Assembly: GCF_008831285.2 (NCBI RefSeq)
Contig: NC_045145.1
Span: 3,016,723-3,080,722 of the forward strand
From: Nymphaea colorata
Lineage: Eukaryota; Streptophyta; Magnoliopsida; Nymphaeales; Nymphaeaceae
Direction: 5' to 3'
DNA: 64,000 nucleotides
Shown: piece by piece, positions 11,301 to 40,100 of the stretch
How positions within the stretch are numbered: position 1 is the stretch's first letter
Layout of the letters: each line of letters opens with the position of its first letter
The notes under the pieces: generated by a model
Database searches by the model: none
Seen by the model: only the letters and a program-made list of their open reading frames with translations
What the model was told of the DNA's origin: nothing
Position numbers and translations under genes: made by a program

Positions 11301-14300
11301 TCTCTCTCTCTCTCTGAAGACTGTGTTCATTCATGTCCATCCTAATTTAGGTTTCTGGCTCAGCAACTGGTCCCTGTCTCTCCCCTTTTTTCTCAAGACA
11401 CACAAGACACAAACACACACACCCACACCCACACAGAGGTTCATGCGCACACTCCATTAGACATGTCATGAACGTAGTTTTATATATGAAGGCCATAGCG
11501 TTCACTTTTCCGTAGAATGTTTGAACTTCGTTCCATTATTTGGATGCATTTGGCAACGGTGCTCATGATATAATCTGTTTGACGTTCTGGACTATCTGAT
11601 TCTTGTATTTGGAAACTTTCAATTAAGCAGATAAGCAAAATGGACTTTCTTGGATGTCTTCAGGTCATGCTTTTGCATAATTGACGAACTATAATCTGCC
11701 ATTAAATTTCTTAATGGTTTGAGCAACCTTTTTTTTTGTGAAAAAAAAAATCTTGACCTTAACTTAGCGGCACTTTTGTCTAGGTCACTCTCATGCACCT
11801 TTAGGAAGAAGGATTGGATACACAAGTTGATGTGGATACTTTTGGGTATTAACATTTTTATTGCATGGAAATTCTCCTTGTTCCTTCTGCTTAACCTTTA
11901 ATGTCTCCTTTTTTCTGTGTTGGTGTATTATAGTTGACAAATCAACAAGCGCATGGTTTTGTTTATTACAGTACTAAACCCTGAATTTGTAATATGCAGC
12001 TGCTAAATGTTTACATGCCAAAGTTTGAGACTGCTGGGAAATTCTGGCCTGTGGTGCACAATTGTCTGATATTTTCTTTGGTATTGATGCAAGCTATTGC
12101 TGTGGGAATATTTGCACTGAAGAAGCTTGCACTTGCATCCAGTTTGACAATTCCACTTCCTATACTCACGCTCATATTTAATGAGTACTGCAGGAAACGG
12201 TTCCTGCCCATATTCAACACATATTCGGCTGAGGTACTTCATAATTTGATGGTCATAGATATAGAAGTCACTTTCAGCTTTTCGTATCAATATTTTTTAT
12301 GATGTCCTGTTTGTTTTGTGATTGGATCTCTTGAACCCTTCTGGACATTGTCAAAAAATAATTTATTCAGTCATCCATGTGCAGAGCACCAGTAGTTTTT
12401 CATGCTTCGACTTTGTTCTATGCTCTTGTTGTTATTCATGTGTGTGGAGAGGTTTGTTGCTGTTGCATGTTTTGTACTTTTCACTTCAGTATTACCATAA
12501 CCTTACTGTCACTAGAACCTAGAGGGTGCTTTCCTTCTGAAAGTGATAATCAAAGAGGGATGAAAGCAGAAGACTAAGAATCAGAAATTTACGTGGTTCG
12601 GTACAGTATGTACGTCCACAATATAAGCCTCTCAAAACTCACACACACATAACCTCAGAAATTTATATGCGGTGGAGGCTGCTACAATTTGTTAATGTTA
12701 AGTTGGGTTTACAAAAATGCTTATACACGTTTTGGTGACTGTCTTTGTCAGTCACAATTCATGCTACATTTGTGGTTGCCAAAACCGAGCCAGCCATGAC
12801 CGTGTCTCCTTGGTTGATGGTTGTAGATATGTTTTCACCCTTACAATGCTTGACAAATTACAATCAAGTCAGCCTATTCATTCTCTTCACAACTTTTTTA
12901 TTTTAATGCTAGTTTTAATTTTCTAGAAACCTTCCAGATTGTCAGCAACAAAACTTTCTCTCTTAAAGTGGAAATTCCTGTTCTTTCTTTTCTCCCTTCT
13001 TGTTCACTAGTATGCCATTCTTCTCCTTGTCCTATCTCCTCCTTAGGTTATCCATTTTTTATAAGATTAACAGACTTTGGCTCTTTTCTTTTCCTTCCAA
13101 TTTTTGGAAAATTAAACTTCACCTACTGGTCCCAATTGATTTGACATTTGGATCTTCAAATGACACCAGGGTGGCAGCGCAACCTGTGTCACTGATGTCA
13201 TTATATAGCCTTATATAGTTTTAAGCGCATTATGCCAAGGATGCTGTCTCTATGTACGTACACATTTTAATTTTAGGTGGTGTCAAATTCTTCCAACTCA
13301 CTGACAAGGAAAAAAAAAAAACTATACTTCTCCTTTTAAGATGCTTCATAATGTATAGCCTGAGTTTTCTGGCTCCTACCCATCAGGACATAACATTAAC
13401 AACTTAAAGGAAAGACACCCTAGCCTCATATGCTTTCATTGAGTTGCATGGAAACACATGGCGGTTGACCTCAATTTACAAAGAGATGTAGCCTCATATG
13501 CACCTGAAACATTGATTTCTCATTGACAGAAACTTAGAATTACTTATCAATGGATGATGAGTACCAAGAATATGCAGCCTCCTGGTTTCTGGCATACATC
13601 TCCCAAGTTGATTACTTTGAATTGTTGCTTCCGTGATTGCAAAAATATCCAGATTTGATTATTTTTTCACATTCATTTCCAAGCTTGATTGTATGACTTC
13701 ATTCAAGAGTTCCATTGCAGTTGTTAGATGGTGATAGCTTACTTCATCATCAAGAGATTAACAACTGTGTTGTTTGGTGAGAACTGAAAATTTACCTCTA
13801 TATGGTTAAATAGTGGGAAACATAAAGTGAATAGGATTAGAATTGATAAACATTTTCATCATGGGATAAGAGTTACAACTTACAACCATGATTTGCAAGA
13901 TCTCAATTGCAAGTTGTAAGTAATGGGTAATGACTTCTCCCTTTGCACAATTGCTTTGATAAAGGATAAATCTTGTTGGTGATTGAACATGCTTCAATTG
14001 ATTCTGCAATGAAGTAATGATCTACTATAGATTGATTATTGTGCCAGTAACTCAATCCTACACGTTCGTACACGCAGAATCATGCTGACTTTGTCAAACC
14101 TGCTTAAATATTGTCATGTACAATTGGGACTAGAGTGTAGTATTTTTAGTTTTTACACCTATATTTGATCATATTCAATCATAAATTATATTATATATCA
14201 ACAAATAGATAGCTTATAATCATCTGACTATTTCATGTTCACCACCCTTATTTTGAGCTGGCAACTATGTAAACCCATGGGAGGAAAAACAAAAACTCCC

Positions 14301-17300
14301 TTTATTAGCTGTAATATTTGTTTAAAAGAGATTAGTGAAAATTATTAGATCGTACGTGTTGGATTATTTCCTTCACAGTGGGGGAAGCTTGAGCTTAGAT
14401 ATCTATCATGCTCAGTTTGTTACATTACCTCAAGAAGATACAACTTGCAATCGGGTTGGTGAATACATTAGCCATTTGATCTTAGAGACATGAGCTGTAG
14501 ATATATATTCTAATTGCACTACATCACTAATATAATGACTATCCGCCTCAATGTGTTTTGTCCTCTCATGAAAAAATTGCTTATTAGCAATTGAGTAACA
14601 ACTTTATTTTCATACTTCATCACCTTAAAATTGGAACTTTAACATTCAAATCCTTCGACATGGATTTGATCCACATCATCTCACTTGTTGTTTGAGCCAT
14701 GACTCTATATTCTAACTTTGCATGAGACTTGAGAACTGTTAGAATATATTGTAATGGGGAATCGGGTCCATATCTGGACCCGGTCCTATGGGGCACGGAT
14801 ACCGAGGTGGACTCGGTACCCTAGGCGGCACTCTTTCTCTCCTTCCTATATATTCTTCACTTACATGTAATTGTTGAGTTAAGTGAATATAATTTTCTCT
14901 CTCCTAGGGTTGCGGTTTGCCCCTAGGTCAGAGCTTCCCCGTGGTTTTTCACCTCTTTCTGAGGTTTTCCACGTATATTGTGTGTTCTTTCTCTGCTCTC
15001 TCCTTGTGGTTCGTGTTTCTACAAGAACAACAGTTTGTTTCTTGCTCGTCCATGTCACCAGATTTCCTCCTACAAATAAGTTCTCATGTCTTTAATAGAT
15101 CATGCATAATTGACATCTGAACATGCTACCACATCAAGAGAGGTTCCCTTCTTAAATAACAATAATTTTTTAGAAGACTGTTGAGAAAACATGTTGCTTT
15201 TTGATATTTAAAGTGTTATGTGTTTTGGTATTTAGTATTAGGTAGCTTTCTGAATTTTTAATATTTTGGTGGACTCTTTATGTAAAGGGTTAGTCTTAAC
15301 CCTAATCTTATTTAGTCTAATGAAAAGAGGATCAGCAGCACGTTTTTCTGCTGCTACCTTTCTCTCCTCCTTCCTCTCATTCTTCTCTACCTCTCAACGT
15401 AACATGGTATCAGAGCTTGAGACCTAGGGCTGTGACGTCTAGGGTTTTCCTTTCTTTCTCTCCTTTTCTCTTCCTATCATTCTCCATCAAGTTGGGCGTC
15501 TAAGGTTGCTGCTGTCGGTGGGACTGCTTGATAAAGAAAAAGGGGCAGATCACGTTCTTCATGTAGAGACGTGATCTGTACCCTATGTTGCTGCTAAAGA
15601 AGATGTGTTGCTGTTGACGTTCAGATCTTAAGGTTGAAGTCCCTCATGTTGCTGAAGAAGATGTGTTGCTGTTGATGTTCAGATCTGAAGGTCGAAGTCG
15701 ACTAGTTGCTGTTTTGGTTCAGATCTGAAGGTAGAAGTCGACTAGTTGTTGTTTTGGTTCAGATCTGAAGGTCGACGTTGCTGTTTTTGTTGGTTCAGAT
15801 CTGCAGAAACAAAAAAAAAGGGTTGCTGTTTTTGTTTGTTCGAAACAGTTCAGATCTGAATCCAGAAGTGTATCAGATCTAGGTGGTGTCATTGCAACGT
15901 GTTGGTGTTGATCAGATCTGATTCAGTGGATGTTATTATCAAAAATATATATATATATCAGATCAGACGTTTTTTTTTGTGTGTTTCAGGTTTGATTTTC
16001 AGACATTGAATCAAAATATATATAAAGTCTGATCTGCCTGGCGTGTGGAGGTTTGATTTTCAGACATTGATTATCAAAAATACATAACGTCTGATCTGCC
16101 TGGCGTGTGGTGCAGAGTTTTTTTTTCAGCCAAAGGTTGATTTTCAGTCTATAGTGGGCCTGATTTCGTGGTTTTATCATGGCTGCAAACAGATCTATAC
16201 AATTTGATAGAACTGAATCTGGAAATCAACACTTAGAGGCAAGTGTTGAGTACAAAGCTTTCTCAAATCCTTTTTCGTTTGGATCTACTATCAAACTTGA
16301 TGGAGCCAACTATGATGTATGGGCTAGAACCTTCATGTTGTCTGTCGTTGGACATGGGAAGAAATATATATTGGAAGAAGATGAACCGGTTGAAAAAACT
16401 GGTAAATACGCACGGTGGGAGGAAGAAAACAGCATTATTAGTGCTTGGCTTATGAATAGCACTCAACCCCACATAGCAGCAGGACTTTGTTATTATAATA
16501 CAGCCAAAGATATGTGGAATTCTCTTCGGCAGACGTATTCTCAAGATAAAAATATCAGCAAAATTTTACAGGTTCAGCAAAAATTGCTACAAATGCAGCA
16601 AGGTGACATGGATTTGACAGAATATTTTACAAAGTTGAAGTTTGCTTATGAAAAGATGAATTCCTTAAAACCACCCTGTAAGCATTGTCTCAAATCTCAC
16701 ATGGAGCAAATGATTGTGGTTAAATTTCTTGCTGGACTATCTTCTGATTATTCTCCATCCAAGGTTCAAATGCTTACAGGCTCTGATTTTCTCGATCTTG
16801 ATGAGGCCTTCAATAGACTAAACAGATTGGCTATTACTCTTCCTCCTTCCCCAAACAACTCACAGCCATCTGCCCTTGCCTCATTTGGGGGAGGAAGAGG
16901 TGGTCTATATTCTTCCCGTGGTAGAGGAAGAGGCCGAGGCCCTGGAGGACGTGGAAGACTTCAGTGCACATATTGTGGTCGTCTTGGTCACCTAGAGGAT
17001 AGGTGCTGGAATAAAGTGGGTAAACCTAACTCATCCACTTCTTCGTCTGTGACATCTTCATCCAGCTCTACTCCAAATACACATCCTATCAGTATGGCTC
17101 CTAAGGCGAATCCCACTGCTGCTTCTGTAGATGCTACATCTCTTAATTTAAGTCCAGCTGAAATTGACTTAATTATGGAGCATAGGTCTAATGCTACTCC
17201 TTCTACCTCATCGGCATCTACAGTTGTCACAAGTTCAGCGTACTCTGCAGGTAACACTACTTCTAGAGGTTGTTGGATAATTGATTCTGGAGCATCTAAA

Positions 17301-20300
17301 CACTTTTGTGGAGATGCTAGTATTTCAAACCTGCAGAAATTTGATTCTCCTCAACATGTTCGTTTGGCGGATGGAAGACTATCGCCAGTTGAAGGACGTG
17401 GAGATGTTTATCTTTCTCCTTCTTTACATGTCCATGATGTGTTATATGCTCCTGAATTCCCGAAGAATTTATTATTTGTAAACAAACTAACAAAAGAGAT
17501 GAATTGCAGAGTTATTTTTTACTCGGGTACTTGTGTATTTCAGGATCTATCGACTGGGAGGAAGATTGGTGGAGGCCATGAGATAGATGGAATATACATC
17601 TTGGATACATCCCCTAAGGAGGCGTCATTCCATGTTGATTCTACTTCAAGTGCCTTCCAGTGGCATCTCAGATTGGGTCATCCTTCATTCCCTAAACTTC
17701 GGCTGCTGTGTCCTCAAATCTCTTCCACAACGTCTATCGAGTGTGAAGCTTGTCAACTGGGCAAGCATTGTCGTACTTCCTTTCCATCGAGTCAAAGTCA
17801 GTCTAGTCAATGTCTATTTGATTTAGTCCATGTTGATGTTTGGGGGCCTAGTCGGGTTCCAAGTCGGTTGTCGTCTCGTTATTATCTTTCTATTGTTGAT
17901 GATTTCTCTCGTGTCACTTGGGTGTTTTTGATGAAAGACAGAACTGAAGCTTCTTGTATCTTGAAATCTTTCATATTGGAAATAAAAACTCAATTTAATT
18001 CTTGTGTCAAGGTTGTTCGCACTGACAATGCTCTCGAGTTCAAATCCTCTCATTTACTTGAATTCTATAAATCTCTAGGTATTGTTCCACATTTTACATG
18101 CCCTCACACATCTCAACAGAATGGTGTAGTTGAAAGAAAACATCGTCATCTGTTGGATGTAGCCCGCACCATCATGATTCATTCTCATATGCCTTCCAAA
18201 TTTTGGGGAGATGCAATTTTGACTCCATATTACCTAATAAATAGAATGCCATCATCTTCCATAGACAACAAAATTCCAATACAAATTCTATACCCAAATA
18301 GAGCTTTATTTTCGTTACCCCCACGTATATTTGGGTGCACATGTTTTGTCCATAAACTTGGTCCCAATCGAGATAAACTGGCTGCTCAAGCAAGTAAATG
18401 TGTGTTTGTGGGATACTCAAAAAATCAAAAGGGGTATCGATGCCTTGATCCTATATCTAATCGAGAGTTTGTCAGTGCCGATGTAACCTTTCTCGAATCA
18501 TCTCCATACTTTCTTGCACGTACTTCAAATCCTAAGTCTGAGATGTCATCTTCGGTTCCACTTCCAATTCCTCCAATTCCTCTTGAGTCCCTTCCTTGTT
18601 CATCATCACCCTCCATCCCTCGGTTTAAAGATCCTCCTCTTACATATTCAAGAAGAAATCCATCATCTAATGACCCAGCACCATCTTGCTCTCAGGAGGT
18701 AAGTAGTTTTGAATTACATAACATGCCTGAGTGTTCCCTTGATGCTCCAGTTCCTGATGAATTACCTATAGCTCTGCGTAAAGGGACTAGGCAATGTACA
18801 ATTCATCCTCTTTCTAAGTTTGTTAGTACAGCCAATGTGGGAAATCATATGTGCAAATTCATTGATGCCTTGTCAGCTACATCCATTCCTATTTCACATG
18901 AACAAGCTATGTTGGACTCTAAGTGGTACCAGGCTATGAAGGAGGAGATGGATTCTCTCATATCTCGTCACACTTGGGATCTCGTTGAACCTCCTTATGG
19001 GGCAGATATTGTTGGCTCAAAATGGGTTTTCACTATCAAGTACAACTCAGATGGTACAGTTGAGCGCTACAAAGCACGTTTGGTAGCAAAAGGGTACACA
19101 CAGACATATGGTGTTGACTTCTTTGAAACCTTCTCTCCTGTTGCACGTTTGGGCACTATACGACTTATTATATCTATTGCAGTTCATTATGGTTGGAACA
19201 TGTACCAACTCAATGTTAAAAATGCCTTTCTTTATGGGGATTTAACTGAAATAGTCTATATGCAGCAACCACTCGGCTTTGAGAAACAGGGGGAGTGTAC
19301 CAAGGTATGTCTGTTAAAGAATGCTATATATGGTTTGAAACAGAGTCCTAGAGCATGGTTTCAGAAGTTGTGTGAAGTTGTGTCTAAGTTTGAGTTTCAG
19401 AGATCTCCTCTAGACCATTCACTGTTCATAAAAAGGACCTCCAGAGGTATAGTTGTTATGGTGGTATATGTGGATGATATTATTTTAACTGGTGACAATG
19501 AACAAGAAATACATGACACAAAGGAATATTTGCGGCAACATTTTGTTACTAAAGATCTTGGCTCACTACGTTACTTCTTGGGGATAGAAGCGGCAAGGAG
19601 CAAAGAAGGTCTAGTCCTTTCTCAAAGAAAATATGTTCTTGATTTGCTTCACGAAACAGGTATGACTGGAACTAAACCAGCTTCTATACCTATGAATTCT
19701 CGTACTCATTTATATGATGACAAATCTGAGCTTGTTGATAGCAAATCATATCGGTCTCTCATTGGAAAGCTACTATATGTAACAATTACTAGACCTGATA
19801 TATCCTTTGCTGTGGGAAAACTAAGCCAATTTATGGACAAGCCGAGGAAAGCCCATTGGGATGCAGCTCTGTTATTATTGAAATTTCTCAAAGGCTCCCC
19901 TGGGAAGGGTCTATTATTTAAAAGAAGCACCTCACTTCAGATAGAAGCTTACTCTGATGCAGATTATGCAGGCTCAATTGATGACAGAAAGTCCACTACA
20001 GGATTCTGTATCTTTGTTGGTGGCAACTTAGTCTCTTGGAGAAGTAAAAAACAAGCTGTTGTTGCTCGATCAAGTGCAGAGTCAGAATATCGAGCCATGG
20101 CCCAAACAGCCACTGAGATAACATGGGTGAAAGGCATGCTAGAAGGTCTTGGAATTCAGGTTGAGCTGCCTATAAAAATGCAATGTGATAATAAAGCGGC
20201 TACTTACATAGCAAATAATCCGGTCTTCCACGAGCGGACCAAACATATTGAAGTTGATTGTCATTACATTAGAGACTTAGTCCAAGCTGGGATTATCTCT

Positions 20301-23300
20301 ACTGAGTATGTTGCTTCCGAAGACCAACCTGCAGATATATTTACCAAAGCTCTTCCAATATCCAATTTCACGAAGTGTTGTAGCAAGCTGAGCATGATAG
20401 ACATCTATGCTCCAGCTTGAGGGGGAGTGTTGAGAAAACGTGTTGCTTTTTGATATTTAAAGTGTTATGTGTTTTGGTATTTAGTATTAGGTAGCTTTCT
20501 GAATTTTTAATATTTTGGTGGACTCTTTATGTAAAGGGTTAGTCTTAACCCTAATCTTATTTAGTCTAATGAAAAGAGGATCAGCAACACGTTTTTCTGC
20601 TGCTACCTTTCTCTCCTCCTTCCTCTCATTCTTCTCTACCTCTCAACGTAACTGTTAGAATATGTTGTTGTGGGAACCAGGTCCATATCTGGACCCGGTT
20701 CTATGGGGCGCGGGTACCGAGGTGGGCTCGGTACCCTAGGCGGCTTCTCCTCTCTCCCTCTATATATTGTCACTTATGTGTAAGTGTTGGATTAAGTGAA
20801 TATAATTTTTCTCTCTCCTAGGGTTGCTGTTTGCCCCTAGGTCAGAGCTTCCCCGTGGTTTTTCACCTCTTTCTGAGGTTTTCCACGTATATTGTGTGTT
20901 CTTTCTCTGCTCTCTTCTTGTGGTACGTGTTTCTACATGGTATCAGAGCCACCACGTGTGAGATCGTTGGTGGGCAAGTAGTGTTTTTTCCGCCGTTCTT
21001 GTGCCGCCTCCGTTGCCGTTTCCAGCACCGCCGCCGACACTGTTCCCAGCGCCGCTACTGTTGCTGGTTTCCGTGCTGACGCCATCCAGGAACGCCGCCG
21101 CTGCCGCCGTCGTTTTTGTCCTTCCGCCGCCCAGGTACACCGCCGTCGTCCATCGTTCCCAGCGCCGCCGTCGTTTTTGTTTTCCGCCGCCCAGGAACGC
21201 CGCCGTCGTCGTTCCCAGCGCTGCCCTGCCGTCGTCTCCTGCCTTCTCGTCGCTCCTGCCTCGTTCTCGCCGCTGTGCCTCTTGTTGCTGTGTGCGTGTT
21301 TGTGATGGCAGAAGCGATGGGCACTCAAAAAGATGTCATTCTTGACGCGGGCAGCGCCTCCAAGACTGAGAACGTGCCGATCCAGGTCACCTCCATCTGT
21401 CTGACTAAGGACAATTACCTATCCTGGTCTGCCGCTCTCGAGATTGGGATTACTAGCCGTGGGCGTCTCTCTTACATCACTGGCGACAATCCTGCGCCCA
21501 TCAAATCTGACCCTCAATGGGCAACGTGGGCGTTGGAGGACAGCCAAGTGAAGGTATGGATTATCAGCTCCGTGTCCTCCGATATCCAGCCCCTCATTCT
21601 GCGGAAGCCGACCTCTTTTGATATGTGGACTGTGCTTGCGAAGATGTATGGTCGCAAGAAGAGACATCTGCGCACCTATCAGATTAAACACAGTATTTAC
21701 TCCCTGACACAGGGTGATTTGTCTGTTGCTGCCTTCTATGCTGCCCTGAAGACCAAATGGGAGGAGCTAGATTACCATGTGACTGATGAGTGGAAGTGCG
21801 GTTCAGATCATTCCCTCTACTGGGAAAAGGAATGGATGGACCGTACGTTTCTGTTTCTGGGAGGCCTGCGGGATGAATTTGAGTCTATTCGCAGCCAGAT
21901 TCTTAATGGTGATGAGATTCCGGGGATAGATGAAGTATATGCTCGAGTTGAGTCTGAAGAACAACGTCGCCAGGTGATGCAACTCGACACCGGTCATGGC
22001 CCTTCTGCCTTTGTCAGCTGTGCCTCAGGGACTGGGCAGCGTCCTGCCCGACATTGCACTCATTGCAACAAGTTGGGACATTCGGTGGATTTCTGTTGGG
22101 ATCTTCATCCCGAGAAGAGACTGGTCAGAGGTCGTCCTCCTTCTGGCAAGCGTAGCCCTTCTGTGTCTGATTCCAGTCAGAGCAATACTTCTAGTGGTGC
22201 AAAGTCCAAGCTGTCCCCTGCTCAACTTAAGGAGCTACAGGCGTACATCAGCCGCCTATCGACTACCCCTGAGGAGTCCTCCACGTCTGAAGGGGCTCAG
22301 CTAGCCCAAGCCCTCGTTGCCTCGACTGATCAAGGTAACCCTTCTCTTGGTGATTGGATTGTTGATAGTGGAGCCACTCACCACATGACAGGGAACTCTA
22401 AACTCTTTCAAGAATATCAACTTTTCTCTGGCAAGCAACGCGTGTCTATGGCAGATGGGTCTTCTATCTCTGTGGCTGGGAAAGGGAGCTTGTCCCTGTT
22501 GAACAAATACCGTCTCCACAATGCCCTGCATGTTCCAAATATTCCTGTGAACTTACTCTCTGTCAGCAGTATTACTAAAGAATTAAATTGTAATCTGATT
22601 TTTTCTGCTGATCACTGTTCCCTGCAGGACTTGGTGACGGGGAAGAAGATTGGGATTGGTTCGGTTACTGATGGGCTCTACAAACTGCCGGTGCAAGTTG
22701 CTTCAGCATTGATTTCTGCCACGAGTGGTCACTTGTCTAGTGTGAACGATAGATCTACTGTTCTGCGATGGCACGAGCGTCTTGGTCATCTCCCATTCCA
22801 GTTAATAAAGAAGTTGTTTCCTCATTTGTTTGCTTCTGTCTCCATTGACTCCTTCGCTTGTGAAGTGTGTCAATTGGCTAAACATGTCAGGGCTTCGTAC
22901 CCTATTTCATTGAATAAAACCACTCATCCGTTTGCCTTAGTTCATTCCGATGTTTGGGGTCCTTCTGGAGTACCCACATGTGGTGGTTGTCACTATTTTT
23001 TGACGCTTATTGATGATTACTCTAGATGTACGTTCGTGTTCTTGTTGCGAGAACGTAGTGAGGTTCCAGCAGTTGTGAAAAACTTTGTTGCCTTTGTTGA
23101 GACTCAATTCCATACAACTGTTCAAGCTTTCCGTACGGATAATGCAAGGGAATATGTCTCTCAATCCCTTGATAATTTCTTGAAAGGCAAAGGTATTGTT
23201 CATGAAACCTCTTGTAGTTATACCCCTCCTCAAAATGGTATAGCTGAATGTAAAAATCGTCATCTTTTGAATGTTACCCGGGCCATTATGTTCCAACGTC

Positions 23301-26300
23301 ATGTCCCGAAGCGGTATTGGGGTGATGCACTTCTCACTAGTGCACACCTCATTAACCGTATGCCTACTAGGGTGTTGGATGGTCAGTCTCCTTATTCTAC
23401 CCTGTGGCCCACTCAGAATCCGTGGCCTCTTACTCCTCGTGTCTTTGGGTGCAGTTGTTTTGTGCATAATCATAGCCCTACTCTCAAAAAACTTGATCCC
23501 CGGTCTATTAAAGGAGTTTTCTTGGGGTACTCTTCCACTCAGAAGGGGTACAAATGTGTGGATCCCACTACTTCCAAAGTGTATGTTTCGAGGGATGTCA
23601 CATTTCATGAACATGAATCGTATTTTCCGGTGAATCCTCTTCAGGGGGAGTGTCTTGGGAACAAAGGGGAAGAGTATTCCTCTAATCAGCTGATTCAGTT
23701 TATGGAGTTTTTGGATTACAAGGTTAGTCCCAGTGTGATTGACACGGTCACGGTCAGTAATGAGAAGGGCAGTCATATGGAAGGGGTCACGGTGGATGCT
23801 CAGCCCACTGTTGCCCGGGATCACTTGTTTGGCCAGGTTTATGTCAGAAAGGAGAAAGCTACAGTGGAAGATGTTGGTGATGAGGATAGAACCAATCCCA
23901 ATCCTGTGATCTCCCCGGATGACCCAAGTCCATCGAATGAAGAGCTCCCCATTGCTTTGCGCAAAGGCACCAGGTCATGTACTTCTCACCCTATTCAGAG
24001 ATTTGTTTCTTATGCTAAGCTCAGTACAAATTACAAATGTTTTATCACAACCTTATCCGAAGTTGTTATTCCCAGGTCGGTGGATGATGCTAAGGATGAT
24101 CCCAAGTGGTTACATGCTATGACGGAGGAGATGGGTGCGTTAGCTAAGAACAAAACATGGGAAGTTGTTGATATCCCTAAAGGGACACATTTAGTTGGCT
24201 CTAAGTGGGTTTACAACGTGAAGTACAAACCTGATGGCACTGTAGATCGATATAAAGCTCGTCTGGTTGCAAAAGGGTTCAGTCAGAAGTATGGGATCGA
24301 CTATCTTGAGACCTTTGCCCCTGTTGCAAAGTTGAAGACCGTGAGGGTTATTCTTGCTCTTGCTGTGCACAGGAAGTGGCGCATGGACCAGCTTGATGTT
24401 AAAAATGCGTTCTTGAACGGCCATCTGGAGGAAGAAGTCTATATGATCATGCCTCCCGGGTATGTTCAAGAGGGAAAATGTTGTCACCTCAAGAAAGCTT
24501 TGTATGGCTTGAAGCAGTCGCCTAGAGCTTGGTTTGAGAGACTAAGGATCGTTATGAAGTCTACTGGGTACAAGCAAGGAAATGGAGATCATACCCTATT
24601 CATAAAGCAGAGAGATGGTCTGGTGAGTCTTCTCCTTGTCTACGTTGATGATATGATTGTCACTGGCAGTGATGAGGAAGAAAACAAGCTAAAGAATTCG
24701 ACCTCAAGGATCTGGGTAAGCTGAGATACTTTCTGGGGATAGAGATTGCTCGATCAGAGACAGGGCTGGTTATGAATCAAAGGAAGTACACTCTTGACTT
24801 ACTAAAGGAGACAGGTAAACTTGGTTGTAGGCCCTATCTTACTCCTATGGAGTCGGGGACTAAGATAAGTATCAAGACAGACACTATTCTGGATGAGGAA
24901 GGAAAAAGGCGATATCAGAGGCTAGTAGGTAAGCTTATCTATCTTACTCTAACTCGCCCTGATATCACGTATGCGGTAAATGTGCTAAGTCAATTTATGC
25001 ATGCTCCCACGGATTGTCACTGGAAGAGTGTAGAAAGAGTGTTGGGATATCTAAAGAATGACCCAGGAAAAGGACTGCTGTATACTCGACAAGACAAACT
25101 TACTATTGAGGGTTACTCAGATGCAGATTGGGCAGGTTGTACTGACACAAGGAGGTCCACTACAGGGTATTGTATCTTTCTTGGAGGTAACCTAGTTGTT
25201 TGGAGAAGTAAGAGGCAAGAAGTTTGTTCGAGGTCTAGTGCTGAGGCTGAGTACAGAGCTGTTGCAATGGGGGTTACAGAGATGCTGTGGCTAAAGATTC
25301 TTTTAACTGATATTGGTGTGGAACTGGGAGATAAAATGAAGATGTACTGTGACAACAAGTCTGCGATTAACCTTGCCAATAATCCAGTTCTACATGACAG
25401 GACCAAACATGTGGAGATTGATCGTCATTTTATCCGGGAACGCATTGACTCAAAGGAGCTGATTCTGCCATATATGAAATCTGAAGATCAAGTTGCAGAC
25501 GTCCTAACTAAAGGGCTTTGTACTTCTTCATTCGAAAAGAATGTTAGCAAGCTTGGCATGTTTGACATGTATGCCAAGTTTGAGGGGGAGTGTTAGAATA
25601 TGTTGTTGTGGGAACCGGGTCCATATCTGGACCCGGTTCTATGGGGCGCGGGTACCGAGGTGGGCTCGGTACCCTAGGCGGCTTCTCCTCTCTCCCTCTA
25701 TATATTGTCACTTATGTGTAAGTGTTGGATTAAGTGAATATAATTTTTCTCTCTCCTAGGGTTGCGGTTTGCCCCTAGGTCAGAGCTTTCCCGTGGTTTT
25801 TCACCTCTTTTTGAGGTTTTCCACGTATATTGTGTGTTCTTTCTCTGCTCTCTTCTTGTGGTACGTGTTTCTACAGTAACAAAGACTTTAAATATATAAG
25901 AATCGTCATAGCTACATCCCAATGCACTCTGGTTGTTTTGTTCATAAGATGACTGATTTTACTAACAAGTAGAGATATATCAACTCTAGTGGCAGTCACA
26001 TAAAAGTCGTGTATCAACAAAAGAGTGATAATTTTTGCTATCAACTAGCTCATGTTGTGCATCAAATAAGTGTATCTTGGGATCCATCGGAACATTGGCA
26101 GGTTTAGCACTCAACATTCCCATCTCTTCAGCCAATCCAACAGATACTTGGCTTGGGATAAAACTATAACTTTCTTATCGTTGACCATGTCAGTATTTAA
26201 GTAGTATCTTAGTGGCCATGGTCATTGGTGGCAAAATACTTTTGAAGATGTGCCTTGGTGTCAAAAATGCCTTGCATACTACTCCCTATTAATAATATGT

Positions 26301-28611
26301 TATCCACATACACAACTATAATAGCAACAACTCCAGAACAGACCTTCTTAATGAATAAAGGGTGGTTTGATATTTACCATGAAAGCCAAAAGTTGACATA
26401 ACTTCAAACAACTTCTGAAACCAGGCAGAAAGGCTTCATTTTAAACCACACAAAGCTTTCTTTAGTTTTCAGGCTTTCTCACACCCCCCTTGAGCCTTAT
26501 ATTTTGGATTTTGGAGGTTGTTACATATACACAGTCTCAATAAATTACCATATGAAAATACATTCTTTACGTCCTTAACTGACATAGTGACTGCCCTATA
26601 GTACCAAGAGACAACCAGGGTATCAATTTTGGCGGTAGGAGATAAAGTTTCAAAAAGTCCATTTCATATAGGCCTTATATCTTTCCACAAAACAATTAGA
26701 GTGATAACTTAATGGTAAACACCTATTTACAACCAACAACGTCTGCATCTGAAGGAGGTGAGACTAATTCCCAGGTTCCACGTATTACTATTATACAAGT
26801 GTCAGAGAGATTATCCCACATTTGTTTGGCAGTAGGATGATGTGAAAGTCCATCTGCAATATGAGGTTGCGCGTTGTTTGTTCCACATAACAATATCTTT
26901 ATCTTCTTCCCATGTAGCATATTTTCCCATCGTCTATGCGGGCTTCAATAAAATATGTTTTTCTATGGCTACCTCACCGAAGTGCAGGACCATCTCTGAT
27001 AATTAGTCTCGTCAAGTTTCACATAAGACCCATTTGAAAAGGGGTTTACAAATGCCTTGTACTCACCTGCTGAACCCCTTTCTTGTCTACCTTTTTTCTT
27101 TTGGATAGGCAATGAGGATTACAAATAAAAACTGCTAGAAGAAATAGATTTCAATCTGCATGCACAAGACAAGCTGATTTAGTACTACTGTAGAAAAGCA
27201 AAAATACACTTCACGCCCCACGATTCCTCAGGCCTGATCAGAAAGAGTAGGCAGATCTATGTACAGTCTGCTTCTTGCACACCACAATCACTATAACTTC
27301 AACAATTACAATGTCAAACATATAAGCTCTGAAAACATTCCACGACATTTAACTTTAGGGCATTGAACAGTTCAGAAAAAATTAAGAGCATTTGCACGAT
27401 GTCAGAAAATATAAGTTCTGAAAACACGCCATGACAATCAGCAACGTCAAACCTGAAAAATAATAAGCAGCGAAGCAGGGACAACATTTTTATGCTTCCA
27501 ATCTGCTTAAACTACAATCAGATTCATATCCGATGCTCTTCAACTATCTGCACGTCCAACACCTACTTCTCAATTCTCATCTGCATCCAATCTACATTCT
27601 ACATGACGTCCGGGAAAACAATGTTTCAATCTGGGTGATCGTGAGAAAAGGACTCTGCTATACTATTTTTGCAACAGAGACCAGGTCTTAGATTCCCATA
27701 TCCTGGCTCCACCATACGAAAATAATCTGCTGAAATGAAAGGGGATAGAAGGTGGCTCCTGTCAATAGTGGCATGCAATGTGAGATGGGACAATCATGGC
27801 CTGGGTTAGCGTCAAATGGCCCTAGAATCGATAGGGCTCTGATACAATGTGCAAACCGATGGGAAGAAGAACAGAAAAATGCCTTCATTAATCCTAATCT
27901 TTGTTTAAATAGAGATTAGTGAAAATTACATAGTAGTCCTTATCGCAAAAAAATAATAAAAGCTCTTAGTGCATTTCAATTAGGTACCCCAAATAATAAA
28001 TATTTCTCTCAAGAGCAATCTATCATTTTAACCATAAATTTCTGACAATAAATGTGAACTGAACTTCAACCCCTTGCCATTCTCTCACTGAATCCAGCAT
28101 CCTTGGATCAATTGGTCCATATCTTAAATAATGAAGAATCTCCTACTTTGCTATTGTTCAAGCACTTGCTATTCTCAATGCATGCTGTGTTGGCCACTTT
28201 AGTTTTCATCCAATTGTCTAGGGGAAATTTGTCGTATACCACACAATGGCATCTTGACAAGACCCAGCTGATTTTATCAAGCAGCAAAATTATGAAGTTA
28301 ACTTATATCAACTTCAGCTGAATCTAAAATTAGCATTTTCTATATCATTCTTTGTTCTCTGATGTCTTGCCTTTCATGTCATGTTAGTTTCTTTCTTCTT
28401 TTTCCTTGAAGCAGCTTTTTATGTTTGCTTTTGAATAATGTCAATACAGAGCTTGATCAAGAAAGACCGGAAAGTGCAAAATGATCCATCGCTGGATGAG
28501 TTCCTTGACAAACTTGTTAGTTCTTATCGTGATCCAGCATTGTTGCCACTACAGTACTCTTCAACCTTGGATGATGGAAACAGGACTCCACTTCTTGCTT
28601 CAGAAGTCTAA
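593..28611 (+). CDS. HYP1-like OSCA/CSC1 channel, copy A (exons 3-10, 5'-truncated by window)
   Basis: Hyperosmolality- and mechanically gated Ca2+-permeable channel family (OSCA/CSC1/DUF221), multi-pass membrane protein, closest by eye to Arabidopsis HYP1 of the OSCA2 clade. Exons with GT-AG borders: 593-656, 984-1193, 2493-2681, 3239-3537, 7154-7430, 8373-8654, 12000-12233, 28450-28611 (TAA). These give 1717 coding bases. If the missing exons 1-2 match copy B, the protein is about 717 residues (HYP1 is about 700). Visible landmarks are HRTSRLQSL in the cytosolic domain, EIPAAFV and [12 protein letters not shown] before the channel domain, [12 protein letters not shown] and SQIERSA in the pore-side helices, and [13 protein letters not shown] near the end. 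Every exon starts and ends in the same phase as in copy B. Intron 9 (12234-28449) is swollen by nested Copia elements and intron 8 by a Copia remnant. No stop codon or frameshift was seen in the exons, so the gene may still work if the long intron is spliced. The family is sure; exact orthology is not. Confidence 0.9.
4953..5851. mobile_element. hAT-like non-autonomous DNA element in intron 6 of copy A
   Basis: The element opens CAATGTTGTA and closes TACAACACTG, an imperfect terminal inverted repeat of the hAT CAGTG type. It is flanked by near-identical 8-bp duplications, CTTTTAGG (4945-4952) and CTTTTATG (5852-5859). Both subterminal regions carry many copies of GATAC/GTATC, the sort of clustered motif a hAT transposase binds. 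There is no transposase frame. Length is 899 bp. An 8-bp duplication and CAGTG-type ends are hAT hallmarks, so the superfamily call is fairly strong. Confidence 0.75.
6216..6592. repeat. Three-copy tandem repeat, unit about 125 bp
   Basis: Units start at 6216, 6353 and 6478. Each runs from a GATCCCAATG-type start through a TATTTAAGGAC block to a CCTTAGTGCACA end. Units 2 and 3 are nearly identical; unit 1 is more diverged and about 12 bp longer. The array lies in intron 6 of copy A and was not found in intron 6 of copy B. Confidence 0.85.
7602..7712. repeat. Imperfect inverted repeat (hairpin) in intron 7 of copy A
   Basis: A left arm of A-rich sequence containing CGAAGAAATGGGGAAAA is mirrored by a right arm with TTTTCTTCCCATTTTTTCG followed by T-rich sequence. 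The arms are about 28 bp around a spacer of about 50 bp. This may be a small foldback element or chance complementarity of A/T tracts. Confidence 0.5.
8231..8320. repeat. Compound (CT)n-(TA)n microsatellite
   Basis: About 22 bases of CT repeat are followed, after a short ATATG interruption, by about 65 bases of pure TA repeat. It ends about 50 bp before exon 8 of copy A, so it overlaps the region where the branch point and pyrimidine tract would lie. Confidence 0.95.
9634..10530 (-). mobile_element. Antisense Copia remnant (RNase H end plus LTR) in intron 8 of copy A
   Basis: Read on the minus strand, 10530-10350 holds decayed Copia RNase H sequence with [16 protein letters not shown] and then LTVYTD. 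The segment 10020-9960 holds [12 protein letters not shown] and FLIGKYG, the usual C-terminal end. Next comes a GGGAATG purine tract and an LTR beginning TGTTAAATTG (high end 9934, low end about 9634-9654). Several stop codons interrupt the frame. Only the 3' part of the element is present. Copy B's intron 8 is 2 kb shorter, as expected if this insertion came after the gene duplication. Confidence 0.75.
14268..14377 (-). repeat. 3' LTR (probably shortened) of antisense Copia element
   Basis: It lies directly after the purine tract and end of RNase H, read on the minus strand (14440-14380, with the motif LSMIDI). It starts TGTAAACCCATGGG on the plus strand and ends in CA near 14377. It is homologous to 27848 onward. 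Confidence 0.6.
14380..14736 (-). pseudogene. RNase H C-terminal part of the antisense Copia element
   Basis: Minus-strand similarity to the RNase H of element 1 is plain: [17 protein letters not shown] near the high end and LSMIDI near the low end, with stops and frame changes between. The high end is cut by the solo LTR. After one copy of its AGAAC duplication the similarity resumes at 15029. Confidence 0.75.
14737..15023 (+). mobile_element. Solo LTR of the element-2 Copia family
   Basis: 287 bp from TGTTAGAATA to TTTCTACA, clearly the same family as the LTRs of element 2 but more diverged. It is flanked by a perfect 5-bp duplication, AGAAC (14732-14736 and 15024-15028). No internal sequence remains, so this is the usual product of recombination between the two LTRs of a full element. 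It sits in the RNase H region of the antisense element. Confidence 0.92.
15029..15178 (-). pseudogene. RNase H segment of the antisense Copia element between two insertions
   Basis: Read on the minus strand it gives [16 protein letters not shown] and SKKQTVV, aligning with the RNase H of element 1. It links the fragment below 14737 to the fragment above 25881. Confidence 0.75.
15179..15404 (+). repeat. 5' LTR of Copia element 1
   Basis: 226 bp, TGTTGAGAAA to AACGTAACA, followed directly by the tRNA primer-binding site. It ends with a C/T-rich run. Confidence 0.95.
15405..15416 (+). other. Primer-binding site of Copia element 1
   Basis: TGGTATCAGAGC, complementary to the 3' end of initiator methionine tRNA, abuts the 5' LTR. 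It is the site where minus-strand cDNA synthesis would start. Confidence 0.95.
15588..15805 (+). repeat. 40-bp tandem repeats in the leader of element 1
   Basis: The block GTTCAGATCTGAAGGTCGAA recurs with a 40-bp period at about 15677, 15717 and 15757, with partial units on either side. It is non-coding leader between the primer-binding site and gag. Confidence 0.85.
15989..16112 (+). repeat. 61-bp direct repeat just before gag of element 1
   Basis: GGTTTGATTTTCAGACATTG starts at 15989 and again at 16050. Each unit ends with CTGATCTGCCTGGCGTGTGG. The second unit ends about 65 bp before the gag-pol start codon. Confidence 0.85.
16179..20420 (+). CDS. Copia gag-pol polyprotein, element 1
   Basis: One unbroken 1413-codon frame from ATG 16179 to TGA 20418. 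Domains in order: gag (about residues 30-230); an RG-rich stretch and zinc knuckle [14 protein letters not shown] (about 263); aspartic protease [11 protein letters not shown] (about 365); GAG-pre-integrase WHLRLGH (about 493); integrase core with VHVDVWGP (about 549), RTDNALEF (about 613) and [11 protein letters not shown] (about 647); reverse transcriptase starting SKWVFTIKY (about 946) with YVDDI (about 1097); RNase H from [10 protein letters not shown] (about 1255). The order PR-INT-RT-RH is that of Copia. Oddity: motif A of reverse transcriptase reads [11 protein letters not shown]. Functional elements have Asp at the Asn position, which is a metal-binding catalytic residue. The frame is intact but the enzyme is probably dead. 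Confidence 0.95.
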   Translation: MAANRSIQFDRTESGNQHLEASVEYKAFSNPFSFGSTIKLDGANYDVWARTFMLSVVGHGKKYILEEDEPVEKTGKYARWEEENSIISAWLMNSTQPHIAAGLCYYNTAKDMWNSLRQTYSQDKNISKILQVQQKLLQMQQGDMDLTEYFTKLKFAYEKMNSLKPPCKHCLKSHMEQMIVVKFLAGLSSDYSPSKVQMLTGSDFLDLDEAFNRLNRLAITLPPSPNNSQPSALASFGGGRGGLYSSRGRGRGRGPGGRGRLQCTYCGRLGHLEDRCWNKVGKPNSSTSSSVTSSSSSTPNTHPISMAPKANPTAASVDATSLNLSPAEIDLIMEHRSNATPSTSSASTVVTSSAYSAGNTTSRGCWIIDSGASKHFCGDASISNLQKFDSPQHVRLADGRLSPVEGRGDVYLSPSLHVHDVLYAPEFPKNLLFVNKLTKEMNCRVIFYSGTCVFQDLSTGRKIGGGHEIDGIYILDTSPKEASFHVDSTSSAFQWHLRLGHPSFPKLRLLCPQISSTTSIECEACQLGKHCRTSFPSSQSQSSQCLFDLVHVDVWGPSRVPSRLSSRYYLSIVDDFSRVTWVFLMKDRTEASCILKSFILEIKTQFNSCVKVVRTDNALEFKSSHLLEFYKSLGIVPHFTCPHTSQQNGVVERKHRHLLDVARTIMIHSHMPSKFWGDAILTPYYLINRMPSSSIDNKIPIQILYPNRALFSLPPRIFGCTCFVHKLGPNRDKLAAQASKCVFVGYSKNQKGYRCLDPISNREFVSADVTFLESSPYFLARTSNPKSEMSSSVPLPIPPIPLESLPCSSSPSIPRFKDPPLTYSRRNPSSNDPAPSCSQEVSSFELHNMPECSLDAPVPDELPIALRKGTRQCTIHPLSKFVSTANVGNHMCKFIDALSATSIPISHEQAMLDSKWYQAMKEEMDSLISRHTWDLVEPPYGADIVGSKWVFTIKYNSDGTVERYKARLVAKGYTQTYGVDFFETFSPVARLGTIRLIISIAVHYGWNMYQLNVKNAFLYGDLTEIVYMQQPLGFEKQGECTKVCLLKNAIYGLKQSPRAWFQKLCEVVSKFEFQRSPLDHSLFIKRTSRGIVVMVVYVDDIILTGDNEQEIHDTKEYLRQHFVTKDLGSLRYFLGIEAARSKEGLVLSQRKYVLDLLHETGMTGTKPASIPMNSRTHLYDDKSELVDSKSYRSLIGKLLYVTITRPDISFAVGKLSQFMDKPRKAHWDAALLLLKFLKGSPGKGLLFKRSTSLQIEAYSDADYAGSIDDRKSTTGFCIFVGGNLVSWRSKKQAVVARSSAESEYRAMAQTATEITWVKGMLEGLGIQVELPIKMQCDNKAATYIANNPVFHERTKHIEVDCHYIRDLVQAGIISTEYVASEDQPADIFTKALPISNFTKCCSKLSMIDIYAPA
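20428..20652 (+). repeat. 3' LTR of Copia element 1 (last base displaced to 25881)
   Basis: 225 bp matching the 5' LTR with two substitutions (near positions 13 and 160). The terminal A was separated by insertion of element 2, so it is now found after the second GTAAC copy, at 25881. Confidence 0.95.
20653..20937 (+). repeat. 5' LTR of Copia element 2
   Basis: 285 bp, TGTTAGAATA to TTTCTACA. Contains two hairpin-forming palindromes near its start and TATATATT at about 20760. Confidence 0.95.
20938..20949 (+). other. Primer-binding site of Copia element 2
   Basis: TGGTATCAGAGC directly after the 5' LTR, again complementary to initiator methionine tRNA. Confidence 0.95.
21305..25596 (+). pseudogene. 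Copia gag-pol of element 2, frameshifted
   Basis: The first good ATG is 21305 ([10 protein letters not shown]). The frame is open further up but has no ATG there. It runs to a stop at 24722-24724 and covers gag, zinc knuckle [14 protein letters not shown], protease [15 protein letters not shown]-pre-integrase WHERLGH, integrase ([26 protein letters not shown]) and reverse transcriptase with intact [11 protein letters not shown] and YVDDM. Between about 24685 and 24715 the reading shifts to another frame, which stays open to 25596 and carries the rest of reverse transcriptase and RNase H ([18 protein letters not shown]). The frame relation fits loss of one base. Truncation before RNase H should prevent replication without help from another element. 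Confidence 0.92.
25591..25875 (+). repeat. 3' LTR of Copia element 2
   Basis: 285 bp following the purine tract; differs from the 5' LTR at four positions by eye. Hairpin palindromes at 25617-25634 and 25651-25673 are perfect here. Confidence 0.95.
25887..26780 (-). pseudogene. Reverse transcriptase and RNase H remnant of the antisense Copia element
   Basis: On the minus strand, [19 protein letters not shown] (around 26770) is the start of reverse transcriptase. [10 protein letters not shown] follows near 26425 and [15 protein letters not shown] near 26310, where the usual YVDDI has one Asp replaced by Asn. [11 protein letters not shown] near 25900 begins the RNase H part. Stops and frame changes are frequent. 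Confidence 0.75.
26785..27080 (-). pseudogene. gag remnant of the antisense Copia element
   Basis: Minus-strand reading gives [19 protein letters not shown] near 27050 and [20 protein letters not shown] near 26850, aligning with gag of element 1. Near 26785 it passes straight into reverse transcriptase, so the rest of gag, protease and integrase have been deleted. The junction happens to stay in frame. Confidence 0.75.
27848..28048 (-). repeat. 5' LTR of antisense Copia element
   Basis: Lies outside the minus-strand primer-binding site. Its inner part matches 14268 onward. The outer border is placed at TTTCTGACA (28048) by the TG...CA rule and is uncertain. Confidence 0.55.
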
Positions 28612-29246: not shown

Positions 29247-29520
29247 CTAGATGACACTCTATGAGCAATGTGGTTTTGTGTCACTATATGGCGAGTTTAA
29301 AACCTTATGTGGCACATTGATTTACGTTGTTTGGACAGGAGAAGGATCGTCCTTTATAGGTTTTGGTATGTACTATGTACCTAGATGATGACACTCTATG
29401 AGCAATTGTGGTTTTGTGTCACTGTATGGCGAGTTTAAAACCTTATTTGGCACATTCATGTACGCTGTTTGGACAGGGGAATGATCGTCCTTTATAGGTT
29501 TTGGTATGCTCTATGTAGCT
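29247..29520. repeat. 144-bp tandem duplication
   Basis: Two units beginning CTAGATGA(TGA)CACTCTATG at 29247 and 29391 share TATGGCGAGTTTAAAACC and ATCGTCCTTTATAGG. The second unit has a 3-base insertion near its start and several substitutions. Confidence 0.9.
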
Positions 29521-37176: not shown

Positions 37177-40100
37177 CTATGGGAAAGCATTCTTTCTATT
37201 TCTTTAGAATCTTTGATCGTTTAGCTCCTGAGACTGCAGTTGCTAATTTGATTCTTCTCTTCTTTCATCATTTTGTGTTTTCTTTTATTACTTATAAATC
37301 TATGTATCAAGCTACCTTTTATTCATCTGCAAAGTTTTGCTCCTTATGTGGTACTCTCACCATCTACTAAGTTTATGGAAATGCTCTTTTTGCTCGGTCA
37401 TTTTAGGTCAACCATCTTCAAGTGATTTACTTTTTGAACTGGGGGCACCTGTTGCTTGATATGGTCGTTCTGCTTAATATATTGCTTATACATGTTGATT
37501 ATATTGCTTTATTATGACGACTTAATGTGATTTTTGTCATTGTAATTGATTTTTGTACATTTCTGTTGTCGGGCTTCGGAGCTAGTTTATCTTCTAAGTT
37601 ATGTATAGATCTTAGTTGCTACCGCAGTTTGCTTCACATACTCAGAATTACTCTACCTTTTTCTATGGCCAGATATACCATAATAAGTTTACAAGATGCC
37701 TTTTTTCCTTTGCAGGAAATTCCTGCTGCATTTGTTTCTTTTAGATCCTGTTATGATGCGGCAGCTGCAAATCAAATACAACAGCGACCCAATCCAACAG
37801 AATGGACCACTGAGCAAGCTCCAGAGCCTCGTGATGTTTACTGGCCATTCCTTTTAACCACATTTCTTCAAAGGTGGACATTCAAGTTGGTCGATCTAAT
37901 TGCATATATTGCACTGACTGTTCTATTCATTGTTCCTGTTGTGTTTGTACAAGGACTTGCAAACCTTGAGGAGCTAGAACTGTTCTTTCCTCTTCTGACA
38001 GGCTTATTAAGCATGTGAGTTTTTTTTATCTTAGTTTGTGAACCCTTAAAGCATAAATTTGTCATTGCATATTTTCCCCTACGTTGTTTCTAGTGGATAA
38101 CTTATGCCAATCTTTGAATGTTCATAGTTCCTAAATCATGGCATCACTAGCTGGTGGCCTGAACTGGGAAATAGGTCTTTTGGAAATAGCTATGTGCGTC
38201 CATTATCTTTCCAAATTTTATGTAAACCATACCAGTCCTTTATCCTCAGCCCCAGAAAGCAAATCTTGGACCTTTGGCTACAGAAACTGGGATTGGCCTG
38301 GCCTGGCTGGCCAACTAGGATTTCTATTTAAGAATTTCACATTTAATAAGGGACACACAGAATCTACCGTATCATGAATACCAAGACGTTCAAGACACAC
38401 AACCACAGCAGATTTAGCAGGAAGCTTTCCTCCACATATTTTTGCTATTTCCTCTGCGAGGATCCTTAATCCAGAAAATACTTGTGGCTAGGTAAAAGGA
38501 CCGAGAGGATGAAAAAAATGGTTGTTGTTGCACCTATAACTTGTCTCTTTGCAGTTGGTTTTTAATCGCCTGATTTAGTTTCACTGCAATCAGATCCATT
38601 TGTATACTTAGGAAACTGTCAGCAAATTCTGTCCCCTGTCTAAGGATAAGGGAAGCCATTTAACTTCAGGATTTCTTGTATGCACAAGAACAAATTTATG
38701 TGCTCTATATGAAATAGAAAAAGGATCTATCAAGGAAACTCAACAAATATGAGAAGATTATATGAAGCCAACAAGATAGGGTATGGAGGCATAAGAACCC
38801 CTTAATAACAAAAAATCTAGATTAAGAGAAAAAGAAGTTGCTTTAGATGACTTCCTTGCATGTACTTTTTGGTTTTCATCTTATACTGGAAAATAACCCT
38901 CGATAATATGTCAAATTATAGTCACGTACATGTGCAAGCATGCATAAACACATAGAGCATGTAATAAATACAAGACGTTCTGCTTTGGCCATATTCCATC
39001 TGACATCCTTTATCCCTGTGTTTTTCTTACGTTCTTTTCAATTGGCTTTCTTGTTTGTCGTTTAGTTCATAGTTTGCCGCACGGATTAGAGCTAACCCTC
39101 TAGTCACTGCATCACTACCTTGCCAAACCAATCAGAGGAATAAACTGCTGGTTCTCTTTTCTTTTTTCAATCCCAGGTGCAGAATTTTGCTAGTGCCCTT
39201 AGGGTCTATTATGGGACCCTAATATTAGCATTTTCTCAATGTAAGTGCCCTTAGGTTTTTCTTAGCATTTTAATAACTATTTATAAATCTTGCAAAAATT
39301 AGTTGAAAGCTCATATTCTCAAGATTCTTTTGTATATTTTATTTTTTTTAAAAAATAAATTATTGTGACTTTCCCAAATAAAACAAGCTTTCTGATTAAT
39401 ACCTGTCGCTTGGAGAGATAGGGAAGAAGAAGAAGAGGACGTGAGGAAGAAAGAGAGTAAGAAGCAGTCACGTTGTGTACGGCTGCTCCCCTTCCTTTGG
39501 AATAAATACTGCTAAGGTTATGTCTAACCCCTTACATAAAGAGTTCAATAAGAAATTAAAATTCAAAAAGCTACCTAATAATAAAGTTCCAAAATACAGA
39601 AAACCTCAAACCAGTACATTTTCTCAACAATACCCAAGAAAAACTTTGCTGCCAAGAACCTGAAAATGATACTTGTGACAATGCAATTACACATAGGCAG
39701 CTACTTTGGAAAAGAAAAAGAAGGAACGGTACATGTATTTCATGGTTGATATACCATACATTTAGTAAGATGCAACATGAATTAAAGAGAAAAATAAGAG
39801 AAAATAGGAAAAAAGGGATTTCTCCCAAAGCAGGCAAAGGTAGAACAAGTTGCAGTGCTATCAAAACCTTGAAAGGTAAATGGATAGTTGTTCTCTGGCT
39901 TAGCTCAAAAATCAGATGTCATTTGAGAACTCACCTTGACAAGTTAGTTGCCTGGGAGGAAAGTTTCTGTAATAAAGGAAGGATAGACCCTAAGGGCACT
40001 TGCAAGATTCTGCACCTGGGATTGAAAAAGAAAGAGAACCAGCAGTTTATTTCTGTGATTGGTTTGCCAAGTTAGTGACACAGTGATTAGAGGGTTAGCT

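What the first reader, a model, noticed from the sequence alone, without database searches (positions are those of the whole stretch)
14268..28048. Four-layer Copia nest whose insertion order is fixed by target-site duplications
Seen: the solo LTR is flanked by AGAAC, element 1 by AAGAC and element 2 by GTAAC. If each insertion and one copy of its duplication are taken out, the antisense RNase H sequence becomes continuous again. This gives the order antisense element, then solo-LTR parent and element 1 (relative order of these two open), then element 2. The nest accounts for nearly all of the 13.5-kb size difference between intron 9 of copy A and of copy B.
Basis: seen in the sequence. Interest (0 to 1): 0.7.

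Follow-up and report, generated by a model that had tools for sequence, protein, structure and literature searches.

The report
Nested jumping genes in an intron

Summary
The solo LTR (14737-15023, AGAAC), element 1 (15179-25881, AAGAC) and element 2 (20653-25875, GTAAC) each sit between exact 5-bp duplications. Pieces of the interrupted antisense Copia, searched apart, meet in order against element 1's polyprotein and in 10 of 11 genomic relatives fetched. LTR divergence agrees: 17/109 (antisense), 2/225 (element 1), 4/285 (element 2). Corrections: four elements on three levels, not four layers; right border most likely 28017, not 28048; the antisense element has an imperfect duplication (4 of 5), a shortened 3' LTR and an internal deletion. 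The host intron, the last of an OSCA/HYP1-like channel gene, is 16,216 bp in copy A and 2,681 in copy B; the 13,750-bp nest covers the 13,535-bp difference. The order of solo-LTR parent and element 1 stays open. Element 1 has an open 1413-codon frame but a changed reverse-transcriptase motif. Arrangement and mechanism are textbook; interest is low.

The parts
12234..28449 (+). last intron of gene copy A (OSCA/HYP1-like), GT...AG, 16,216 bp
   Evidence: exon ends read and matched to copy B; exon before it matches CSC1-like protein HYP1, 8t57_A, E 6.5e-29
14268..28017 (-). old antisense Copia element, outermost level; 13,750 bp with inserts, 2,750 bp of its own
14263..14267 (.). AACTA, candidate target-site duplication of the antisense element (4 of 5 against 28018-28022 ATCTA)
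28018..28022 (.). ATCTA, candidate right copy of the antisense element's duplication
27848..28017 (-). 5' LTR of the antisense element, about 170 bp, next to a primer-binding-site-like sequence at 27836-27847
   Evidence: 10 of 24 further genomic matches end at 28006-28012 and none of the 24 goes further; relatives' LTR ends
14268..14377 (-). 3' LTR of the antisense element, shortened to 110 bp, 17/109 differences from the 5' LTR
   Evidence: gapped alignment; the part that blastn aligns is 79 columns at 82%
26791..26798 (-). internal deletion junction of the antisense element: gag residue about 119 followed at once by reverse-transcriptase residue about 927 (element 1 numbering)
   Evidence: relatives L006, L007, L012 and L013 keep part of the sequence that is missing here
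14737..15023 (+). solo LTR, 287 bp, TG...CA; duplication AGAAC at 14732-14736 and 15024-15028
15179..25881 (+). element 1 (Copia), 5,475 bp net of element 2; duplication AAGAC at 15174-15178 and 25882-25886
15179..15404 (+). 5' LTR of element 1, 226 bp, followed by TGGTATCAGAGC
16179..20420 (+). open gag-pol frame of element 1, 1413 aa; Retrotran_gag_2, gag_pre-integrs, rve, SH3_retrovirus, RVT_2; motif A of the RT has lost its usual aspartate
20428..20652 (+). 3' LTR of element 1 (its last base is 25881), split by element 2
20653..25875 (+). element 2 (Copia), 5,223 bp, innermost level; duplication GTAAC at 20648-20652 and 25876-25880
20653..20937 (+). 5' LTR of element 2, 285 bp
21116..25596 (+). 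gag-pol of element 2, in two frames: open to 24724, then from 24772 in another frame
25591..25875 (+). 3' LTR of element 2, 4/285 differences from the 5' LTR

Best explanation
Ordinary successive Copia retrotransposition into the last intron of one of two tandem OSCA/HYP1-like genes. An antisense Copia inserted, probably after the two gene copies had parted (its loss from copy B is the alternative), and decayed (LTR divergence about 16%, internal deletion, shortened 3' LTR). Later a second Copia inserted into its RNase H region and was reduced to a solo LTR by recombination between its two LTRs. An element-1 copy inserted about 150 bp away. An element-2 copy then inserted one base before the end of element 1's 3' LTR. 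Each integrase cut left a 5-bp duplication. Shown: structure, duplications, piece order, LTR divergences. Inferred: solo formation by LTR-LTR recombination, insertion after the gene duplication, and continued splicing of the intron.
For: Three exact duplications at LTR termini. Piece order against polyprotein and 11 genomic relatives. LTR divergence 17/109, 2/225 and 4/285. In the solo LTR's family elsewhere in the genome, 8 of 9 LTR pairs examined share their 5-bp outer flanks, one of them with LTRs 10.5 kb apart. Two of the 39 relatives fetched look like further solo LTRs with exact duplications (L070, L075; a third row so flagged, L060, I set aside because it is the 5' LTR of a pair). No match between nest and intron B in the self-comparison (E up to 1e-8, over 60 columns).
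Against: The antisense element's own duplication is imperfect (4 of 5) and one of seven candidate rows at different assumed borders. The DNA left of it (14114-14265) resembles two places on contig C7; against the same places the DNA right of the nest scores 79 and 84, little above the best of 30 shuffles (74), so its insertion site is less clean than the other three. No reads or other accession could be examined, and the assembly gave no second copy of the left intron flank.
Confidence: 0.95

Rival explanations
1. Assembly artefact: unrelated repeat copies were joined inside the nest.
For: Elements 1 and 2 and the solo LTR belong to multi-copy families, which assemblers can confuse.
Against: Three exact duplications, each pair separated by a whole element or LTR, would hardly survive a false join. 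The window has no N.
Confidence: 0.03
2. Ectopic recombination or conversion between elements made the mosaic, rather than separate insertions.
For: The solo LTR and element 2 LTRs are about 91% alike and lie 5.6 kb apart, so exchange between them is possible in principle.
Against: Each insert keeps its own distinct matched duplication. The solo LTR is up to 98% identical to copies elsewhere but only about 91% to element 2's LTRs, so it is not a product of element 2.
Confidence: 0.02
3. Within the same model: the solo-LTR parent inserted before element 1, so that the four elements have one fixed order.
For: It had time for the reduction to a solo LTR.
Against: 0 private differences in 287 bases against 39 relatives gives no sign of greater age; P(0) = 0.28 at element 1's age. 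The measure is weak, because the solo LTR still differs from its nearest relative at 5 sites.
Confidence: 0.5

Closest known systems
Nested LTR retrotransposons as described in plants (e.g. maize; recalled, SanMiguel and colleagues)
   Same: LTR elements inserted into LTR elements, order read from interruption and LTR divergence
   Different: Small nest of four, inside an intron instead of between genes
Intron expansion by recent LTR retrotransposons in grapevine (PMC3058033; abstract and list of sections seen)
   Same: Recent LTR retrotransposons enlarge introns
   Different: A single gene, with a paralogue alongside as the unexpanded comparison

Membership tests
Copia (Ty1) LTR retrotransposon: elements 1 and 2 | two direct LTRs with TG...CA ends | tested here: met
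Copia (Ty1) LTR retrotransposon: elements 1 and 2 | integrase before reverse transcriptase in one frame; RVT_2 family | tested here: met
   element 1: rve 549-644, RVT_2 931-1173; element 2: rve 603-704, RVT_2 1012-1189, the latter cut short by the change of frame
Copia (Ty1) LTR retrotransposon: elements 1 and 2 | primer-binding site next to the 5' LTR | tested here: met
   TGGTATCAGAGC directly after both 5' LTRs; that it matches initiator tRNA-Met is recalled
Copia (Ty1) LTR retrotransposon: elements 1 and 2 | 5-bp target-site duplication | tested here: met
Copia (Ty1) LTR retrotransposon: antisense element | gag and RT/RNase H sequence of Copia type with LTR at each end | tested here: met
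   the part between gag and RT, integrase included, is missing
Copia (Ty1) LTR retrotransposon: antisense element | 5-bp target-site duplication | tested here: inconclusive
   AACTA/ATCTA, 4 of 5
solo LTR | one LTR, no internal part, exact duplication on both sides | tested here: met
   relatives in LTR pairs exist elsewhere
Named Copia lineage (Ale, Ivana, Tork and the like; names recalled) | placement in a reference tree of plant Copia polyproteins | not tested
   no reference set of lineages was used

The most novel reading that the evidence does not exclude
The sense-strand LTRs in the nest end or alter transcripts of copy A before its last exon, so that the two tandem channel genes now make proteins with different C-termini.
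Probability: 0.08. Interest if true: 0.4.

Novelty: new member of a known kind. Interest (0 to 1): 0.15.

Why it matters
It is a well-resolved example of intron growth by nested retrotransposition, with a tandem paralogue as a built-in unexpanded comparison. It adds no new mechanism. It would matter more only if the nest changes how copy A is transcribed.

Tried and rejected
Tried: resolving solo parent against element 1 by private differences of the solo LTR; too few changes. Looking for a second copy of the left intron flank as an empty site; only the window itself and two short partial matches on C7, whose meaning stayed unclear and whose surroundings (L105, L106) gave no match to the five exon peptides of the channel gene that I searched. 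Literature: two searches on nested insertion and long introns and one on intronic heterochromatin (listings with abstract starts), and one abstract. Considered and rejected: the 28048 right border; a four-deep nest. Failed steps: script error, redone; wrong reading frame, redone. Not done: a genome search with element 2's LTR or with the right intron flank, and any test of transcripts or methylation.

Full report
Setting. The window lies on contig C8 (3016723-3080722) of a 407.8-Mb, 783-contig genome. It holds two tandem copies of a channel gene on the + strand: matching exons run from about 0.6 to 28.6 kb (A) and 34.6 to 47.4 kb (B). One B exon matches PHM7_cyt and, below its cut-off, RSN1_7TM; the exon before the last intron of A matches the solved CSC1-like protein HYP1 (8t57_A, E 6.5e-29) and other OSCA channels. 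The last intron is 12234-28449 in A (16,216 bp) and 44599-47279 in B (2,681 bp).

The three inserts. LTR ends were fixed by comparing the LTR pairs and by the primer site and purine tract beside them. Solo LTR 14737-15023 is flanked by AGAAC. Element 1 runs from 15179 to 25881 and is flanked by AAGAC. Element 2 runs from 20653 to 25875 and is flanked by GTAAC, one base before the end of element 1's 3' LTR. All three duplications are exact. Random pairs of positions in the intron share a 5-mer 0.12% of the time.

Continuity of the antisense element, with pieces kept apart. Against element 1's polyprotein, piece 25882-27847 ends near residue 1238, piece 15024-15178 covers 1240-1295, and piece 14379-14736 covers 1295-1413. 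The genome search with 25887-27847 gave 20 further matches of 64-78% identity, the highest over about 100 bases only; some of the 20 lie in one place. For the best 11 of these 20 a locus was fetched (L006-L016). In all 11 the three pieces match in the expected order and orientation. In 10 of 11 they follow one another closely, though in L013 only part of the middle piece aligns; in L010 about 0.86 kb separates two of them; L015 and L016 are nearly the same sequence and should not count as independent. Four of the loci (L006, L007, L012, L013) keep polyprotein sequence upstream of RT, whereas the window copy jumps from gag residue 119 to RT residue 927. The window copy therefore carries a deletion not seen in those four.

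Borders of the antisense element. The genome search with its 5' LTR and flank gave 24 further matches, one of them the window's own 3' LTR; none goes beyond 28012 and 10 of 24 end at 28006-28012. In relatives the LTR ends in a CA that corresponds best to 28017, although the exact base is an inference (28011 is the other CA) and loose alignments run on weakly to 28025-28039. The 5' LTR is then 27848-28017 (170 bp) and the 3' LTR a shortened 14268-14377 (110 bp). The candidate duplication AACTA/ATCTA has one mismatch, and other candidates exist at other assumed borders. The left flank is 73-81% similar, by stretch, to two places on C7, and blastn matches to both stop at 14265; a looser alignment runs on to 14292 in one of them (L104). 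The right flank scores 79 and 84 against the same places, with 74 as the best of 30 shuffles, so it is not clear whether the resemblance continues there. What that flank is remains unknown.

Order and age. LTR differences are 17/109 (antisense), 2/225 (element 1) and 4/285 (element 2); the first differs from the others at p about 2e-7 and 3e-7, the last two do not differ (p = 0.70). The antisense figure comes from a gapped alignment; blastn aligns 79 columns of the two LTRs at 82%. Both element 1 differences are transitions. Nesting puts element 2 after element 1. The solo LTR is 97-98% identical to the other 39 of the 40 matches scored, a lower bound for the family, and has no difference private to it among these; its nearest relative differs at 5 of 287 sites, so the measure is weak. 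The order of its parent and element 1 is not resolved. Element 2's LTRs are about 91% like the solo LTR, so the two come from different subfamilies.

State of the copies. Element 1 keeps an open frame of 1413 codons, but its RT motif A has lost the usual aspartate (that this residue is catalytic is recalled); the 29 relatives fetched (L024-L052, out of 40 further matches) keep it. Element 2's frame changes between 24724 and 24772. Among relatives of the solo LTR, 8 of 9 LTR pairs examined share 5-bp outer flanks, and one of these pairs is 10.5 kb apart, as a nested copy would be (its inside was not looked at).

Verdict. Four elements on three levels, inserted by ordinary retrotransposition, account for the intron-size difference: the nest is 13,750 bp, the difference 13,535. 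Intron growth by recent LTR retrotransposons is already described, for example in grapevine (PMC3058033, abstract). Effects on the gene are untested. Genes with heterochromatic intronic transposons are a studied class (PMC7145194 and PMC4417168, search listing with abstract starts).

Noticed in passing
39399-39634: Copy B has its own antisense solo LTR (39404-39629, 226 bp, BLAST-aligned part about 72% like element 1's LTR) with an exact duplication GGTAT, between the arms of an inverted repeat (39010-39209 / 39983-40180).
   Followed up: partly
45156-45568: A 207-bp tandem duplication, 97% identical, in the matching intron of copy B.
   Followed up: no
14114-14265: The DNA just left of the nest resembles two places on contig C7 (L103, L104) about 290 kb apart; five channel-gene exon peptides searched around them gave no match.
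   Followed up: partly
14378-14386: Where several relatives of the antisense element show a C-run on this strand (the purine tract read backwards), the window shows a G-run; possibly a micro-inversion of about 9 bases.
   Followed up: no
29250-29520: A direct duplication of about 133 bp, 92% identical, some 0.6 kb after the end of gene copy A.
   Followed up: no
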